Assembly (NCBI GenBank): GCA_016286995.1
Contig: JAEEVA010000015.1
Span: 1-62,932, forward strand
DNA length: 62,932 nt
Direction: 5' to 3'
Origin: Prevotella sp.
GTDB taxonomy: Bacteria > Bacteroidota > Bacteroidia > Bacteroidales > Bacteroidaceae
A program made the translations under genes and the position numbers. How positions within the stretch are numbered: the stretch's first letter is position 1; the number at the start of each line of letters is the position of its first letter. The notes under the pieces were generated by a model. The model did not search any database. It was not told the origin of the DNA and worked only from the letters and a program-made list of their open reading frames with translations. This document shows, one piece after another, positions 20,128-34,406 of the stretch.

Positions 20128-21807
20128 TTACTCCCATTCGATCGTTGCGGGTGGCTTTGACGAGATGTCGTAGCAGACGCGGTTGACGCCACGGACCTTA
20201 TTGATGATCTCGTTCGACACACGGGCCATGAAGTCGTAGGGTAGATGGGCCCAGTCAGCAGTCATGGCATCGGTGCTGGTGACGGCACGCAGGGCCACGG
20301 GGTGTTCGTAGGTGCGCTCATCGCCCATGACGCCGACGCTGCGGACGGTCGAGAGGAGGATGGCACCAGCCTGCCAAACTTGGTCGTAGAGTGATATCTC
20401 GAGTTCACCATTGGACAGTTCTGCCGGGACTCCGGCAGCCAGCACGCGGGCAGCCTGTTCGCCAGAGAGCTTCGTCTTGTATTCGCGCAAGCCGCGGATG
20501 TAGATGTCATCGGCATCCTGCAGGATGCGTACCTTCTCCCTTGTGATGTCGCCCAGGATGCGGACAGCAAGACCGGGACCCGGGAAGGGATGACGGCCAA
20601 TGAGGTGTTCAGGCATGCCTAACTGACGGCCTACGCGGCGCACCTCGTCCTTGAAGAGCCACTTCAGGGGTTCGCAGAGCTGCAGATGCATCTCTTTGGG
20701 CAATCCGCCGACGTTATGGTGACTCTTAATGACCTTACCCGTGATATTGAGACTCTCGATGCGGTCTGGATAGATGGTGCCTTGGCCAAGCCATTTGAAT
20801 TGAGAATTGACAATTGATAATTGAGAATTGGCCAGGCGAGCCTGCTCGTTGAACACCTCAACGAAGTCGCGGCCGATAATCTTTCGCTTCTGCTCAGGGT
20901 CGGTGACGCCGGCAAGGTCGGCAAAGAACTTTTCACTGGCATCGACGCCGATAACGTTCAGACCCAGCACCTTGTAGTCGTTCATGACCTGCTGGAACTC
21001 GTTCTTGCGCAGCATGCCGTGGTCAACGAAGATACAGGTGAGGCGGTCGCCAATGGCGCGGTTGAGCAGTACGGCAGCGACGGAGGAGTCGACTCCGCCG
21101 GAGAGTCCGAGAATGACACGGTCCTCGCCCAGTTGCTCTTTCAGTTCGGCCACGGTGGTGTCGACGAACGAAGCGGCACTCCACTCCTGACGGGAGCCAC
21201 AGATGTCAACCACGAAATTGCGCAACAGGGTCTTGCCCTGCTGGGTGTGATAGACCTCGGGATGGAACTGAACGGCGAATACTGGAGCCTCACCATTAGC
21301 TATGTATTTACTCCCCTCTCCCTTTGGAGAGGGGCTGGGGGTGAGGCTGAATGCGGCGTTCTTGACGTCCTTGGTGGAGCCGATGACACGGAAGCCGTCG
21401 GGGATGGCAGTGATGGTGTCGCCGTGACTCATCCACACCTGTGAATGCTGCTCGAAGCCCTTGAACAAAGGGTTCGTAGTGTCGACGGTCTCAAGATTGG
21501 CGCGGCCATACTCGCGGCTGTCGGCCTTCTCGACACGTCCGCCGAGGGTATGCGAGATGAACTGTGCACCATAGCAGATGCCCAGCACGGGCACCTTGCC
21601 GACAAACTGCGTGAGATCGACCTTGAAGGCCTCGGGGTCGTGGACGGAGTACGGCGAACCGCTGAGTATTACGCCGATGACCGAGGGGTCGTCCTTCGGA
21701 AACTTGTTGTAGGGCATGATTTCGCAGAACGTGTCCAACTCGCGAACACGACGGCCGATGAGCTGGGTGGTCTGGGAACCGAAATCGAGAATGATAATCT
21801 TTTGCAT
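20128..21807 (-). CDS. guaA: GMP synthase (glutamine-hydrolysing)
   Basis: 559 residues from the Met at 21807 (MQKIIILDFGSQTTQLIGRR); an upstream TTG in the flanking repeat is unlikely. Converts XMP to GMP. The class I glutamine amidotransferase half has GICYGAQ (nucleophilic Cys) and QFHPEVYH; the synthetase half has the P-loop LGLSGGVDSSV and the C-terminal dimerisation domain ending PATIEWE. Two extra peptides are inserted in frame: SLTPSPSPKGEG before the QFHPE strand, and NSQLSIVNSQ before the KWLGQGTIYPD motif. Each is coded by a repeat element. All catalytic motifs are intact, so the enzyme should work. Confidence 0.97.
   Translation of the reverse strand: MQKIIILDFGSQTTQLIGRRVRELDTFCEIMPYNKFPKDDPSVIGVILSGSPYSVHDPEAFKVDLTQFVGKVPVLGICYGAQFISHTLGGRVEKADSREYGRANLETVDTTNPLFKGFEQHSQVWMSHGDTITAIPDGFRVIGSTKDVKNAAFSLTPSPSPKGEGSKYIANGEAPVFAVQFHPEVYHTQQGKTLLRNFVVDICGSRQEWSAASFVDTTVAELKEQLGEDRVILGLSGGVDSSVAAVLLNRAIGDRLTCIFVDHGMLRKNEFQQVMNDYKVLGLNVIGVDASEKFFADLAGVTDPEQKRKIIGRDFVEVFNEQARLANSQLSIVNSQFKWLGQGTIYPDRIESLNITGKVIKSHHNVGGLPKEMHLQLCEPLKWLFKDEVRRVGRQLGMPEHLIGRHPFPGPGLAVRILGDITREKVRILQDADDIYIRGLREYKTKLSGEQAARVLAAGVPAELSNGELEISLYDQVWQAGAILLSTVRSVGVMGDERTYEHPVALRAVTSTDAMTADWAHLPYDFMARVSNEIINKVRGVNRVCYDISSKPPATIEWE
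20798..20830. repeat. Heptamer array inside guaA
   Basis: Four and a half copies of AATTGAN, 33 bp in all, encoding NSQLSIVNSQ in the guaA frame. The same family is seen between genes elsewhere in the window. Confidence 0.85.
21311..21348. repeat. 38-bp palindromic element inside guaA
   Basis: CCCCTCTCC and GGAGAGGGG form a 9-bp hairpin with a 4-nt loop, followed by a G-rich half. It matches 35 of 38 bases with the element in prfC (52660-52697) and is read in the same frame. Confidence 0.85.
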
Positions 21808-21814
21808 ATTCAAG

Positions 21815-21931
21815 CCCCCCAAGTTAGGGGGATGGGGGTCTGAACAAGCGTTTATCAGACCATGATTTATGTGTTAGTATTATCAGGAGATTCTGCGCTT
21901 GTTCAGACCCCCTGCCCCCTAACTTAGGGGG
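21815..21931. repeat. 117-bp MITE/BIME-like inverted repeat
   Basis: Arms 21815-21850 and 21896-21931 pair at 33 of 36 positions around a 45-bp centre. Each arm contains its own small hairpin (CCCCCTAACTTAGGGGG type). The right arm supplies the last codons (Thr-Pro-stop region) of the nucleotidyltransferase gene; the left arm ends 8 bp before the guaA start. Confidence 0.75.
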
Positions 21932-32227: not shown

Positions 32228-32228
32228 A

Positions 32229-34406
32229 TCATTTCCTATCGTCTTCTATCTTGTTCAAAGTTTTTCTGGAATTAATCCAGCGTGTAATGGTATCGTAGAT
32301 ACTGCTCTCCTCCTGGTGCTGTGCTGCAGTGAACGTCATGCTCTCTTCCTTCTCCTCACCATGCTGGTCAGGGAAGAGTATCATAAGGTTCTTGCCGCTG
32401 AAGTGCTGCATCAATTCGTTGGGCAGACGTTCCAATGCATTCTTGTATGAAATGGTACCTTTACGGGCGGTGATGACCACGAACATATGGTCTTCACGGA
32501 TATTCTCAGCCAGTCGAGGTAACTCGTTCCAGTGTGCCATATAAGTATATTCTGCCCGAACGTTGGGGTGCCGGTTGTTGATGTATTCGCGTATCAAATC
32601 CATCGACTCGTTGCGTCCATGAAACTGAATGCGGCAGTCAAGATTGCTGGCCATGCGGCTCAAACGTTCCAACCAGCGATGGAAACCTGGCTCAAACTCA
32701 GCACGTGACGGAACAGCCACCTGTATGCGACGCAGCGTATTGAGGGGCTGAACGAAGCGTGTCAGCACAATCTGTCTGTTCAGACCGTTGTAGAGGCTCT
32801 GAATGAATTCGCCCCAGAACTTCGGGTTGACATCAGTATGGACGTGCATACCCATAATAATTTCCGAGGCGCCAAACTCACGGAAGGCATGTTTGATACC
32901 GTTGGCAATATTGGTAGCCAACCGTACCTGTGTCTGCATCTGGATATCGCTGGCAGCAGCACGCTGTACCAAACGTTCCAGCAGCTGCAGTCCTTCTTCA
33001 CGGTGCTTATTAGCGTTCTTGTCGTCGTAGACCACATTCAGGGCTGCCAGCGAATTATTGGCATGCTGGCTGCGCATCATGATAGCCAGCTCCAGCAATT
33101 GCGGGGCAATCTCTGGATATTTGACACACAACAGCATCTTCTCATTATCATGCTGGCTACTGACTGTTGGCTGCTGGCTGTTGGCTATAACAATTTCCTG
33201 AGCAGCTTTCTCTGTCATCAAGGTCGAGATAATGCAGGTGAAGAGTATCATGATGATGACACCGTTCAGTATCTCGTCGTTCACCAAATAATGGCCAGGG
33301 CTAACCTCCAAGCGCATACCAACCATCACCATCGCAATGGCGCCGGCAGCGTGGGCACAGGTGAGACCGAACATCATGTTGCCGGCACTCTTGGGTAATC
33401 GGAACAACATGCTTGACAGATAGGCAGCCACTGCCTTGCCAAAGGTACCGAAGAAGACTGTCAAAGCCACAATCCACAACATGTGAGGTCCCTCAAACAG
33501 CGTACCAACATTGATCAGCATGCCCACACCTATCAGGAAATAAGGAATGAACAGGGCATTGCCGATAAACTCGATACGGTTCATCAGCGGCGACACATGG
33601 GGTATATACCTATTTAATATGAGACCTGCCAGGAAAGCGCCAACGATACCCTCAACTCCGATAGCCTCCGATAGAGATGCAGACAGGAACATAACGCTAA
33701 GCACGAAGATGAACTGCATGATGGCATCAGAATAACGACGGAGGAAGTAACGCGACAGTCTTGGAATGGCCCATATCAGTAAGGCATAGAAAGCCACAAA
33801 CTTCACGAAGAAGATAATCCAGAATAGAATGGAGTTTGACGCTGGCATGAAAGAGCTTCCGTTACCGGTGTCGTAGGATGCTGCGAGAGCTGCCAACATG
33901 AGCAGTGCCATCAACAGCGACAGCATGCTGGAGCCTACACTCAGCATGACACTGGAGTTGCGCTGTAGACCGTAGCGCGAAATGATGGGATAGGCAATAA
34001 GCGTGTTCGAGGCCATGATACACCCCAGCAGGAATGAAGCCTGCGAGGAGTAGCCTAACAGCCAGATTGCCATGAAATAGGTGACGAGAAGTGGCACGAA
34101 ACATGTCAACACGCCGAATATCAGGAATCGGCGGGAGTTCTTCCTGACACTCTCCATATCCATTTCCAGACCTGCCAGAAACATGATATAAAGTAGTCCT
34201 ACCTTGCCAAAGAGTTCGAATGACGAGTCACGCTCCAGAATATTCAGCCCGTACGGTCCTATCAGCACGCCCGCCAGCACCATACCGATGATGTGCGGAA
34301 TGCGCAGCTTGCCCATGATGATAGGAGCAAACAGGATGATAAGCAGTACGACGAAGAATATCAGCGTCGGACTGGTTATCGGAAAGTATGACGTCAGGAA
34401 CAGCAT
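32229..34406 (-). CDS. Kef-type cation/proton antiporter with C-terminal Usp-like region
   Basis: 725 residues. About 12 membrane segments in the first 400 residues follow the CPA2 pattern (GMVLAGVLIGPYGLNIL, MFLAGLEMDMESVR, EGIVGAFLAGLILNR). The soluble C-terminal half (430-725) resembles paired universal-stress-like domains. It probably exchanges Na+ or K+ for H+ at the inner membrane. A heptamer array encoding NSQQPTVSSQ sits at about residues 407-417, in the linker after the last membrane segment, a tolerant site. Confidence 0.88.
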   Translation of the reverse strand: MLFLTSYFPITSPTLIFFVVLLIILFAPIIMGKLRIPHIIGMVLAGVLIGPYGLNILERDSSFELFGKVGLLYIMFLAGLEMDMESVRKNSRRFLIFGVLTCFVPLLVTYFMAIWLLGYSSQASFLLGCIMASNTLIAYPIISRYGLQRNSSVMLSVGSSMLSLLMALLMLAALAASYDTGNGSSFMPASNSILFWIIFFVKFVAFYALLIWAIPRLSRYFLRRYSDAIMQFIFVLSVMFLSASLSEAIGVEGIVGAFLAGLILNRYIPHVSPLMNRIEFIGNALFIPYFLIGVGMLINVGTLFEGPHMLWIVALTVFFGTFGKAVAAYLSSMLFRLPKSAGNMMFGLTCAHAAGAIAMVMVGMRLEVSPGHYLVNDEILNGVIIMILFTCIISTLMTEKAAQEIVIANSQQPTVSSQHDNEKMLLCVKYPEIAPQLLELAIMMRSQHANNSLAALNVVYDDKNANKHREEGLQLLERLVQRAAASDIQMQTQVRLATNIANGIKHAFREFGASEIIMGMHVHTDVNPKFWGEFIQSLYNGLNRQIVLTRFVQPLNTLRRIQVAVPSRAEFEPGFHRWLERLSRMASNLDCRIQFHGRNESMDLIREYINNRHPNVRAEYTYMAHWNELPRLAENIREDHMFVVITARKGTISYKNALERLPNELMQHFSGKNLMILFPDQHGEEKEESMTFTAAQHQEESSIYDTITRWINSRKTLNKIEDDRK
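33154..33188. repeat. Heptamer array inside the antiporter gene
   Basis: Five TGGCTNN units in frame, encoding ANSQQPTVSSQ on the minus strand. Confidence 0.8.

What the first reader, a model, noticed from the sequence alone, without database searches (positions are those of the whole stretch)
20128..34406. Heptamer arrays inserted in frame into four conserved genes
Arrays of 4-5 degenerate 7-bp units lie inside guaA (20798), the nucleotidyltransferase (22138), AmgK-RapZ (26098) and the antiporter (33154). All encode similar polar peptides (NSQLSIVNSQ, NSQLSILNYQ, QQLTANSQQ, NSQQPTVSSQ) and keep the frame and the catalytic motifs. The same family occurs between genes throughout the window. 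This suggests a repeat that spreads into genes at tolerated loops, comparable in outcome to Rickettsia palindromic elements but heptad-based. I know of no described mechanism.
Basis: partly seen in the sequence, partly recalled or inferred. Interest (0 to 1): 0.8.

Follow-up and report, generated by a model that had tools for sequence, protein, structure and literature searches.

The report
Headed seven-letter repeats invading Prevotella genes
Many Prevotella-related bacteria carry very short dispersed DNA elements, in the best-defined form a fixed ten-letter head followed by a tail of seven-letter repeats, while such repeat arrays sit beside predicted promoters and start codons and also, in frame, inside conserved enzyme genes; they likely spread by a copying process that is still unidentified.

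Summary
The arrays are real and period 7 dominates: 9 in the window against 0 in shuffles, 214 in 1.10 Mb of this Prevotella-like genome. The modal length is 32 bp (43 of 214). Of the 214, 82 lie in called genes. Unit families with stops in both orientations are almost never genic (2 of 45, against 80 of 169). The guaA array is absent from 26 of 26 relatives first aligned; of the 29 nearest relatives, 19 are empty there and 10 hold other inserts, all in frame. Some arrays are the tail of a bounded element of about 42 bp: a constant head, GCGGHAGCAA, then about four heptads with one free position each. Head plus first repeat occurs in 163 of 398 genomes of the genus (59 copies here) and in one other of 295 phylum genomes sampled. 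Intergenic arrays abut a TAnnTTTG box (42 of 132; 4 expected) or a start codon (30 of 132; 3 expected). Heptamer repeats are known in bacteria; head, near-fixed size, in-frame insertion and promoter placement look like a new variant. No reverse transcriptase or Y1 transposase passed its cut-off in this 84%-complete assembly, so the copying step is unknown.

The parts
20797..20830 (-). Heptad array inside guaA (gene 20128-21822, minus strand), encoding NSQLSIVNSQ
   Evidence: absent in 26 of 26 relatives; 19 of 29 nearest relatives empty
20831..20850 (-). Possible decayed head of the guaA insert; codons for E-Q-A-R-L-A, where relative L345 reads GCTCGCGTAGCAAAC before its own heptads
   Evidence: comparison by eye of L031 and L345; inference
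22138..22170 (-). Heptad array inside the nucleotidyltransferase gene (21924-22724), encoding NSQLSILNYQ
   Evidence: shared in altered form by L062 and L064
22757..22788 (.). Heptad array between the divergent genes 21924-22724 and 22829-25159 (starts at the ATG codons)
   Evidence: in the sequence it is followed by TACCTTTG
26097..26128 (-). Heptad array inside the AmgK-RapZ gene, encoding QQLTANSQQ
   Evidence: loop also filled by other repeats in relatives
30069..30099 (.). Heptad array between the pseudouridine synthase gene and the asparaginyl-tRNA synthetase gene, running into the ATG
   Evidence: gene names read from the translations, not tested
33151..33187 (-). Degenerate heptad array inside the Na/H exchanger gene, encoding NSQQPTVSSQ
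   Evidence: variable-length loop in relatives
38272..38300 (.). Heptad array between divergent genes, with a TAnnTTTG box 5 bp away on one side and 9 bp on the other
41147..41177 (+). Heptad array that encodes part of a likely signal peptide (LSFIIYHLSFS)
55448..55491 (-). Headed element: 32-bp TTTTCAC array (55448-55479), 5 bp from a TAnnTTTG box of the gene at 54761-55426, preceded on the minus strand by a head with 3 mismatches
   Evidence: absent in most relatives
55500..55532 (+). TAATTCC array pointing the other way, 6 bp from the TAnnTTTG box upstream of a ROK-family kinase gene
56712..56743 (+). 32-bp AATTCTC/AATTCCC array, 6 bp from a TAnnTTTG box
58312..58352 (-). Headed element: head with 2 mismatches (CCGGTAGGAA) and TTCACTN tail, starting at the last base of the transporter gene 56807-58312
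58362..58401 (+). Headed element: head with 1 mismatch (GCGGCAGGAA) and decayed TTCACTN tail, pointing away from the previous one

Best explanation
The arrays are likely the tails of short dispersed elements that are predicted to spread by copying themselves to new sites, after which purifying selection likely leaves them mainly between genes and, inside genes, at loops where they keep the frame and make no stop. Shown: in the best-defined family the element is about 42 bp, a constant head (GCGGHAGCAA) followed by about four TTCACTH units, with a sharp head end and many copies per genome; other unit families share the period and the modal length, and some share the head. Shown: orthologous sites exist with and without the array, and different kinds of repeat occupy the same loops in different relatives. 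Inferred: the unit that moves is head plus tail, because the head accompanies arrays in genes and between genes and is part of a stretch that a relative lacks. Inferred, with low confidence: tails are built from the head outward in 7-nt steps, which would explain the 7-nt period whatever the unit sequence, one free position per unit and more mismatches far from the head. Intergenic copies end a few bases from promoter boxes and start codons, by insertion preference or because they work there; I cannot separate the two.
For: Period 7 far above other short periods. Modal length 32 bp in genic (15 of 82) and non-genic arrays (28 of 132), so promoter spacing does not set it. Bounded consensus of about 42 bp from 58 copies, at most 0.4 bits per position upstream of the head. 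GCGGNAGCAA is followed by an array in 27 of 39 sites of the G000 sample, permuted motifs in 0 of 47. Head plus first unit in 163 of 398 genus genomes, no match of the reversed control seen; in the phylum sample 2 of 296, G000 being one. In the window 3 such sites with up to 3 mismatches, 0.16 expected and none of 100 shuffles with 3. A 63-bp stretch with head and tail in L348, absent in L329. Selection: unit families closed in both orientations 2 genic of 45, others 80 of 169, Fisher p about 1e-8; stop-free orientation in 56 of 66 genic arrays that have only one such orientation. Empty and filled guaA and kinase-promoter sites. Strain HUN156: 25 arrays in 400 kb.
Against: Whole-array copying has no support from internal patterns: shared orders of variant units are no commoner than when units are shuffled within families (104 against a mean of 88, maximum 127 of 300). 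No mobilising enzyme found: no RVT_1 match, and one Y1_Tnp match just under its cut-off (22.1 against 23 bits); the assembly is 84% complete, and no other enzyme family was searched. Most arrays lack a clear GCGG head (23 of 214 have GGHAGC-like letters within 22 bp), the four genic arrays of the window among them. The far end of the element is blurred. No pair of genomes is close enough to show a single insertion event cleanly. Insertion preference alone does not obviously explain the abutment to TAnnTTTG boxes. 10 of 66 genic arrays lie in the stop-prone orientation.
Confidence: 0.68

Rival explanations
1. Each array is a minisatellite grown in place by polymerase slippage from a chance near-duplication, with 7 nt favoured by the polymerase footprint.
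For: Heptanucleotide repeats are the commonest long simple repeats in many bacteria and this cause was proposed (cited in PMC4679880 and PMC4692102; passages seen). Units vary at one position, as slippage followed by mutation might give; internal patterns do not show whole-array copying.
Against: A few unit families recur at unrelated loci; a constant head precedes tails of several families, and head plus TTCAC is in 163 of 398 genomes. Lengths peak at 32 bp, 124 of 214 between 29 and 35 bp, instead of falling off from the detection limit. 200 kb each of a same-genus and an other-family genome hold none.
Confidence: 0.14
2. The arrays are regulatory elements kept by selection at promoters and start codons (protein-binding or RNA-binding repeats), and the genic copies are by-products.
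For: 42 of 132 intergenic arrays end 3-11 bp from TAnnTTTG (random placement mean 4.2, maximum 11 of 500); 30 of 132 abut an ATG (mean 3.3, maximum 7 of 200). In a Beggiatoaceae genome TAACTGA repeats lie just before start codons.
Against: 82 of 214 arrays are genic with the same modal length. At the kinase promoter only 3 of 30 loci (G000 included) have an array although 29 of 30 have a TAnnTTTG box in the 300 bp shown. In HUN156 the ATG signal is not above chance (1 against 0.33) and the box count, 4 of 14, only equals the highest of 300 random placements.
Confidence: 0.12
3. A reverse transcriptase makes tandem-repeat DNA on an RNA template, as DRT10 does, and the product is pasted into the chromosome.
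For: DRT10 makes short tandem repeats by re-annealing at four repeated template bases (abstract and passages seen); 43 of 214 arrays here are 32 = 4 x 7 + 4 bp, many beginning and ending with the same 4 letters.
Against: No RVT_1 match in G000, while the control genomes ring in 3 of 14. 53 unit families would need many templates. The term 'genome integration' does not occur in that paper's text.
Confidence: 0.04
4. The arrays are assembly artefacts of metagenome-assembled genomes.
For: G000 is a fragmented draft (73 contigs, 84% complete), and most of the 80 named relatives are uncultured or MAG records.
Against: HUN156, whose record title does not mark it as a MAG (G067 has a contig of the same length, 345,577 bp), has 25 arrays in 400 kb; related and decayed orthologous arrays occur across species.
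Confidence: 0.02

Closest known systems
Rickettsia palindromic elements (RPE)
   Same: Short repeats inserted in frame into unrelated conserved genes
   Different: RPEs are about 150 bp (passage in PMC10969869) and palindromic; here about 42 bp, no strong fold, tandem heptads
TAACTGA heptamer direct repeats (Beggiatoaceae, Cyanobacteria, five Bacteroidetes)
   Same: 7-bp tandem units, mostly intergenic, often just before start codons, no evident spreading mechanism
   Different: Other unit sequences, several families, a constant head, modal length 32 bp, many genic copies
GGGAATC heptamers of Xanthomonas and GGGGA(T/C)T heptamers of Nostoc
   Same: Degenerate heptads, most often four units in Xanthomonas
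   Different: G-rich, quadruplex-prone; here one strand is poor in G
BrickBuilt MITE of Porphyromonas gingivalis
   Same: Bacteroidales element with leader, tandem repeats and two-way promoter activity
   Different: 23-nt unit, longer, terminal inverted repeats, intergenic only
Borg tandem repeats
   Same: Repeats in genes that keep the frame
   Different: Unit lengths in genes are multiples of three; 7 is not, so here a unit must be stop-free in all three frames
REP/RAYT repeats
   Same: Small dispersed repeats, some intragenic
   Different: Palindromic with GTAG or CGTC tags; no Y1 transposase over cut-off here

Membership tests
Rickettsia palindromic elements | Palindromic element of about 100-150 bp | tested here: not met
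   Bounded consensus of about 42 bp; DNA folding of a 42-mer no better than shuffles
Rickettsia palindromic elements | In-frame insertion into many unrelated genes | tested here: met
   82 genic arrays in called genes; empty and filled orthologs for guaA
Heptanucleotide short tandem repeats (as in Cyanobacteria, Xanthomonas, Beggiatoaceae) | Degenerate 7-bp direct repeats dispersed in the genome | tested here: met
TAACTGA repeats | Unit TAACTGA | tested here: not met
   Its canonical form is not among the 50 families listed of 53; three families were not listed
REP/RAYT | GTAG- or CGTC-tagged palindrome | tested here: not met
   Consensus has neither tag at its ends and no strong fold
REP/RAYT | Associated Y1 transposase | tested here: inconclusive
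   One sub-threshold Y1_Tnp match; assembly 84% complete
MITE | Terminal inverted repeats and target-site duplication | tested here: inconclusive
   Some AACTATG arrays occur as inverted pairs around AAAGATGTTAAA; no duplication could be defined, relatives too distant
DRT10 product | Reverse transcriptase with template RNA | tested here: not met
   No RVT_1 match in G000, an incomplete assembly; template RNA not sought

The most novel reading that the evidence does not exclude
A new class of mobile DNA: modules with a constant GCGGHAGC head (able in principle to form a tiny GC-GNNA-GC hairpin) whose tails are made afresh in 7-nt steps at each insertion, so that the period is fixed but the unit sequence drifts freely; they enter promoters, start-codon regions and essential enzymes and supply new protein loops, linkers and signal peptides.
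Probability: 0.3. Interest if true: 0.9.

Novelty: new variant of a known kind. Interest (0 to 1): 0.72.

Why it matters
Heptamer repeats have been noted in many bacteria without an established mechanism. Here some of them come as bounded, countable elements with a constant head, found by one exact pattern in 163 of 398 genomes of a genus and not in the other 235, so that the gene responsible can be sought by comparing the two groups. They also show repeats repeatedly adding loops to conserved enzymes, and probably reshaping promoters.

Tried and rejected
Whole-array copying: tested by shuffling units within families and not supported. Pairwise mutual information between free positions of the TTCAC family is significant for the six pairs within the tail (p 0 to 0.007) and marginal to absent for the head position (p 0.03 to 0.99); species differences may cause it, so I draw nothing from it. 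Hairpin at the head: predicted at -0.9 kcal/mol but no better than shuffles (z -0.77); the special stability of GNA and GNNA loops is recalled, and one search returned only a search listing. Reverse transcriptase and Y1 transposase searches were negative or sub-threshold. Literature listings: searches (with the word Prevotella; without it) showed no paper on such elements in Prevotella; one search was too broad and one search was for DRT10. Clean empty and filled pairs were sought by all-against-all comparison of three sets of loci; most pairs are only about 70-80% identical, so few boundaries are sharp. Other possible heads (AAAGATGTTAAA with AACTATG arrays, TCATAATT) were seen but not developed.

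Papers: passages of PMC4679880 (two sections), PMC4692102, PMC12632851, PMC3733652, PMC10969869, PMC9879509 and PMC4596501. No paper was read whole. That TAnnTTTG is the Bacteroidetes -7 promoter box, that RPEs are palindromic, that GuaA is essential, and the cyanobacterial repeat literature, are recalled.
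Full report
Observation. Tandem Repeats Finder places arrays of 4.4-5.1 seven-base units at all four sites. A period scan finds 9 period-7 arrays in the window and none in 10 first-order shuffles; only period 14, a harmonic, comes near. In a larger sample of the same genome (462,932 bp) there are 82 against 0 in one shuffle, with lesser excesses at 8, 9 and 22 and at the harmonics. In 1,099,151 bp there are 214; periods 5, 6, 8, 9, 10 and 11 give 1, 3, 28, 12, 5 and 2. 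Parts of the sample were chosen where hits were known, so the density is not unbiased. One family alone (AATTGAN three times) has 290 pattern matches in the whole genome and 0 for the reversed control; in 296 genomes drawn from the phylum, G000 included, 33 have any match and the next highest has 24.

Shape. Lengths are not those of an ordinary microsatellite: 43 of 214 are exactly 32 bp and 124 of 214 lie between 29 and 35 bp, above the detection limit of 21 bp. Many read as a 4-base core, 3 bases, core, and so on, with five cores (seen by eye). The modal 32 bp is found in genic arrays (15 of 82), in arrays beside a TAnnTTTG box (15 of 42) and in the other intergenic ones (13 of 90), so it belongs to the array and not to promoter spacing. 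On the strand chosen for having no more G than C, G makes up 436 of 8,052 bases.

Genes. A simple codon-usage gene finder of my own gave a coding fraction of 0.893; 82 arrays lie in genes and 132 outside. Because 7 and 3 share no factor, an array of 21 bp or more is read in all three frames, so it stays open only if the unit has no stop in any frame. Unit families closed in both orientations are almost never genic (2 of 45) and the others often are (80 of 169), Fisher p about 1e-8. Of 66 genic arrays whose consensus unit is open in one orientation only, 56 lie in that orientation; the other 10 were not followed up. This is what purifying selection on insertions would leave.

Orthologs. The guaA array is missing in all 26 other loci aligned, which reach into other families. 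In the 29 nearest of the genus matches, 19 have the short loop and 10 have other inserts, among them L345 with GCGTAGCAAACTCTCAACTC, and palindromic repeats in others; a second guaA loop behaves likewise. In the nucleotidyltransferase, L062 and L064 have related or decayed heptads and others have different sequence; the AmgK loop holds heptads in some relatives, palindromic repeats in others and a few residues in many. So tolerated loops hold different repeats in different relatives. A solved GMP synthase (5tw7) has an 8-residue gap at this loop.

Element. Enriched words 5-prime of arrays led to a head. GCGGNAGCAA occurs 39 times in the sample (8.3 expected from base composition); 27 are followed by an array by the criterion used, permuted motifs in 0 of 47. 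The tails after this head belong to several families (TTCACTN, TTCATTC, AACTCTC, AATTATC, AATTTTT; G000 and other genomes together). From 58 copies of the TTCAC family the element runs from GCGG to about base 42, with at most 0.4 bits per position upstream and a blurred far end. One base in each unit is free, mostly A, C or T: G occurs in 5 of 295 such positions, and mismatches at the other positions rise from 0.02 near the head to 0.29 at the far end; the first 19 letters were fixed by the search pattern, apart from two free ones. Head plus first unit is in 163 of 398 genus genomes, 59 copies in G000 and up to 101 (G604), with no reversed match seen; in the phylum sample, which holds only two other genomes of the family, only G000 and one other genome of 296 have it. 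The window has three copies with 1-3 mismatches, at 55473, 58334 and 58362, against 0.16 expected; the last two are an outward-pointing pair. L348 carries a 63-bp stretch with head and tail that L329 lacks. Most arrays have no clear GCGG head, among them the four genic ones of the window (the guaA array may have a decayed one); other heads may exist.

Placement. Of 132 intergenic arrays 42 end 3-11 bp from TAnnTTTG, of 82 genic ones 2; random non-coding placement of the 132 gives a mean of 4.2 and at most 11 in 500 trials. Thirty abut an in-frame ATG of a called gene; random mean 3.3, at most 7 in 200. The box lies downstream of the G-poor strand in 29 cases and of the other in 16. At the kinase promoter (55448-55532) a box is seen in 29 of 30 loci within the 300 bp shown, while arrays are seen in only three: two in G000, a TTTTCAC array in G007 and a short AACTATG array in G045. 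Arrays thus came to existing promoters, apparently independently.

Replication. Its lengths peak at 31 bp. G016 (same genus) and G019 (other family) have none in 200 kb each. Among 80 named Prevotellaceae-type loci 37 hold at least one array.

Mechanism. The data show presence, absence and selection, not the enzyme. No RVT_1 match and only a sub-threshold Y1_Tnp match were found in the 84%-complete assembly. The order of variant units is not shared between arrays more than chance, which argues against simple copying of whole tails and fits tails that are made or remade at each site. I commit to dispersal of head-plus-tail modules with selection afterwards; tail synthesis from the head in 7-nt steps is an inference held with low confidence.

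Novelty. Heptamer repeats are known, and slippage with a 7-nt polymerase contact was proposed (cited in PMC4679880 and PMC4692102). RPEs are the nearest in outcome and BrickBuilt the nearest in build. The constant head, the near-fixed size, the in-frame genic copies and the abutment to promoter boxes as a set were not in the passages read or in the listings.

Noticed in passing
window 21310-21351 and 52660-52697: A second repeat, a palindrome encoding LTPSPSPKGEGS or LTPGPSPKGEGS, lies in frame in guaA and in the release-factor-like gene 51696-53318; related palindromes fill the same guaA loop in some relatives.
   Followed up: partly
L154:1302-1549 (contig C2 61302-61549): Four heptad arrays lie in the linker between a GH97 domain and a glucuronyl esterase domain in one open frame.
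   Followed up: partly
window 41147-41177 and L154:7000-7031: TTATCAT arrays encode LSFIIYHLSFS near the start of two genes, apparently as part of the signal peptide.
   Followed up: no
L271:8192-8294, L283:6058-6162, L160:16865-16970: Pairs of AACTATG arrays point outward from a shared AAAAGATGTTAAACG core between divergent TAnnTTTG boxes, like inverted repeats of an element of about 105 bp.
   Followed up: partly
window 21815-21935: Palindromic repeats with runs of C and G flank the guaA start region.
   Followed up: no
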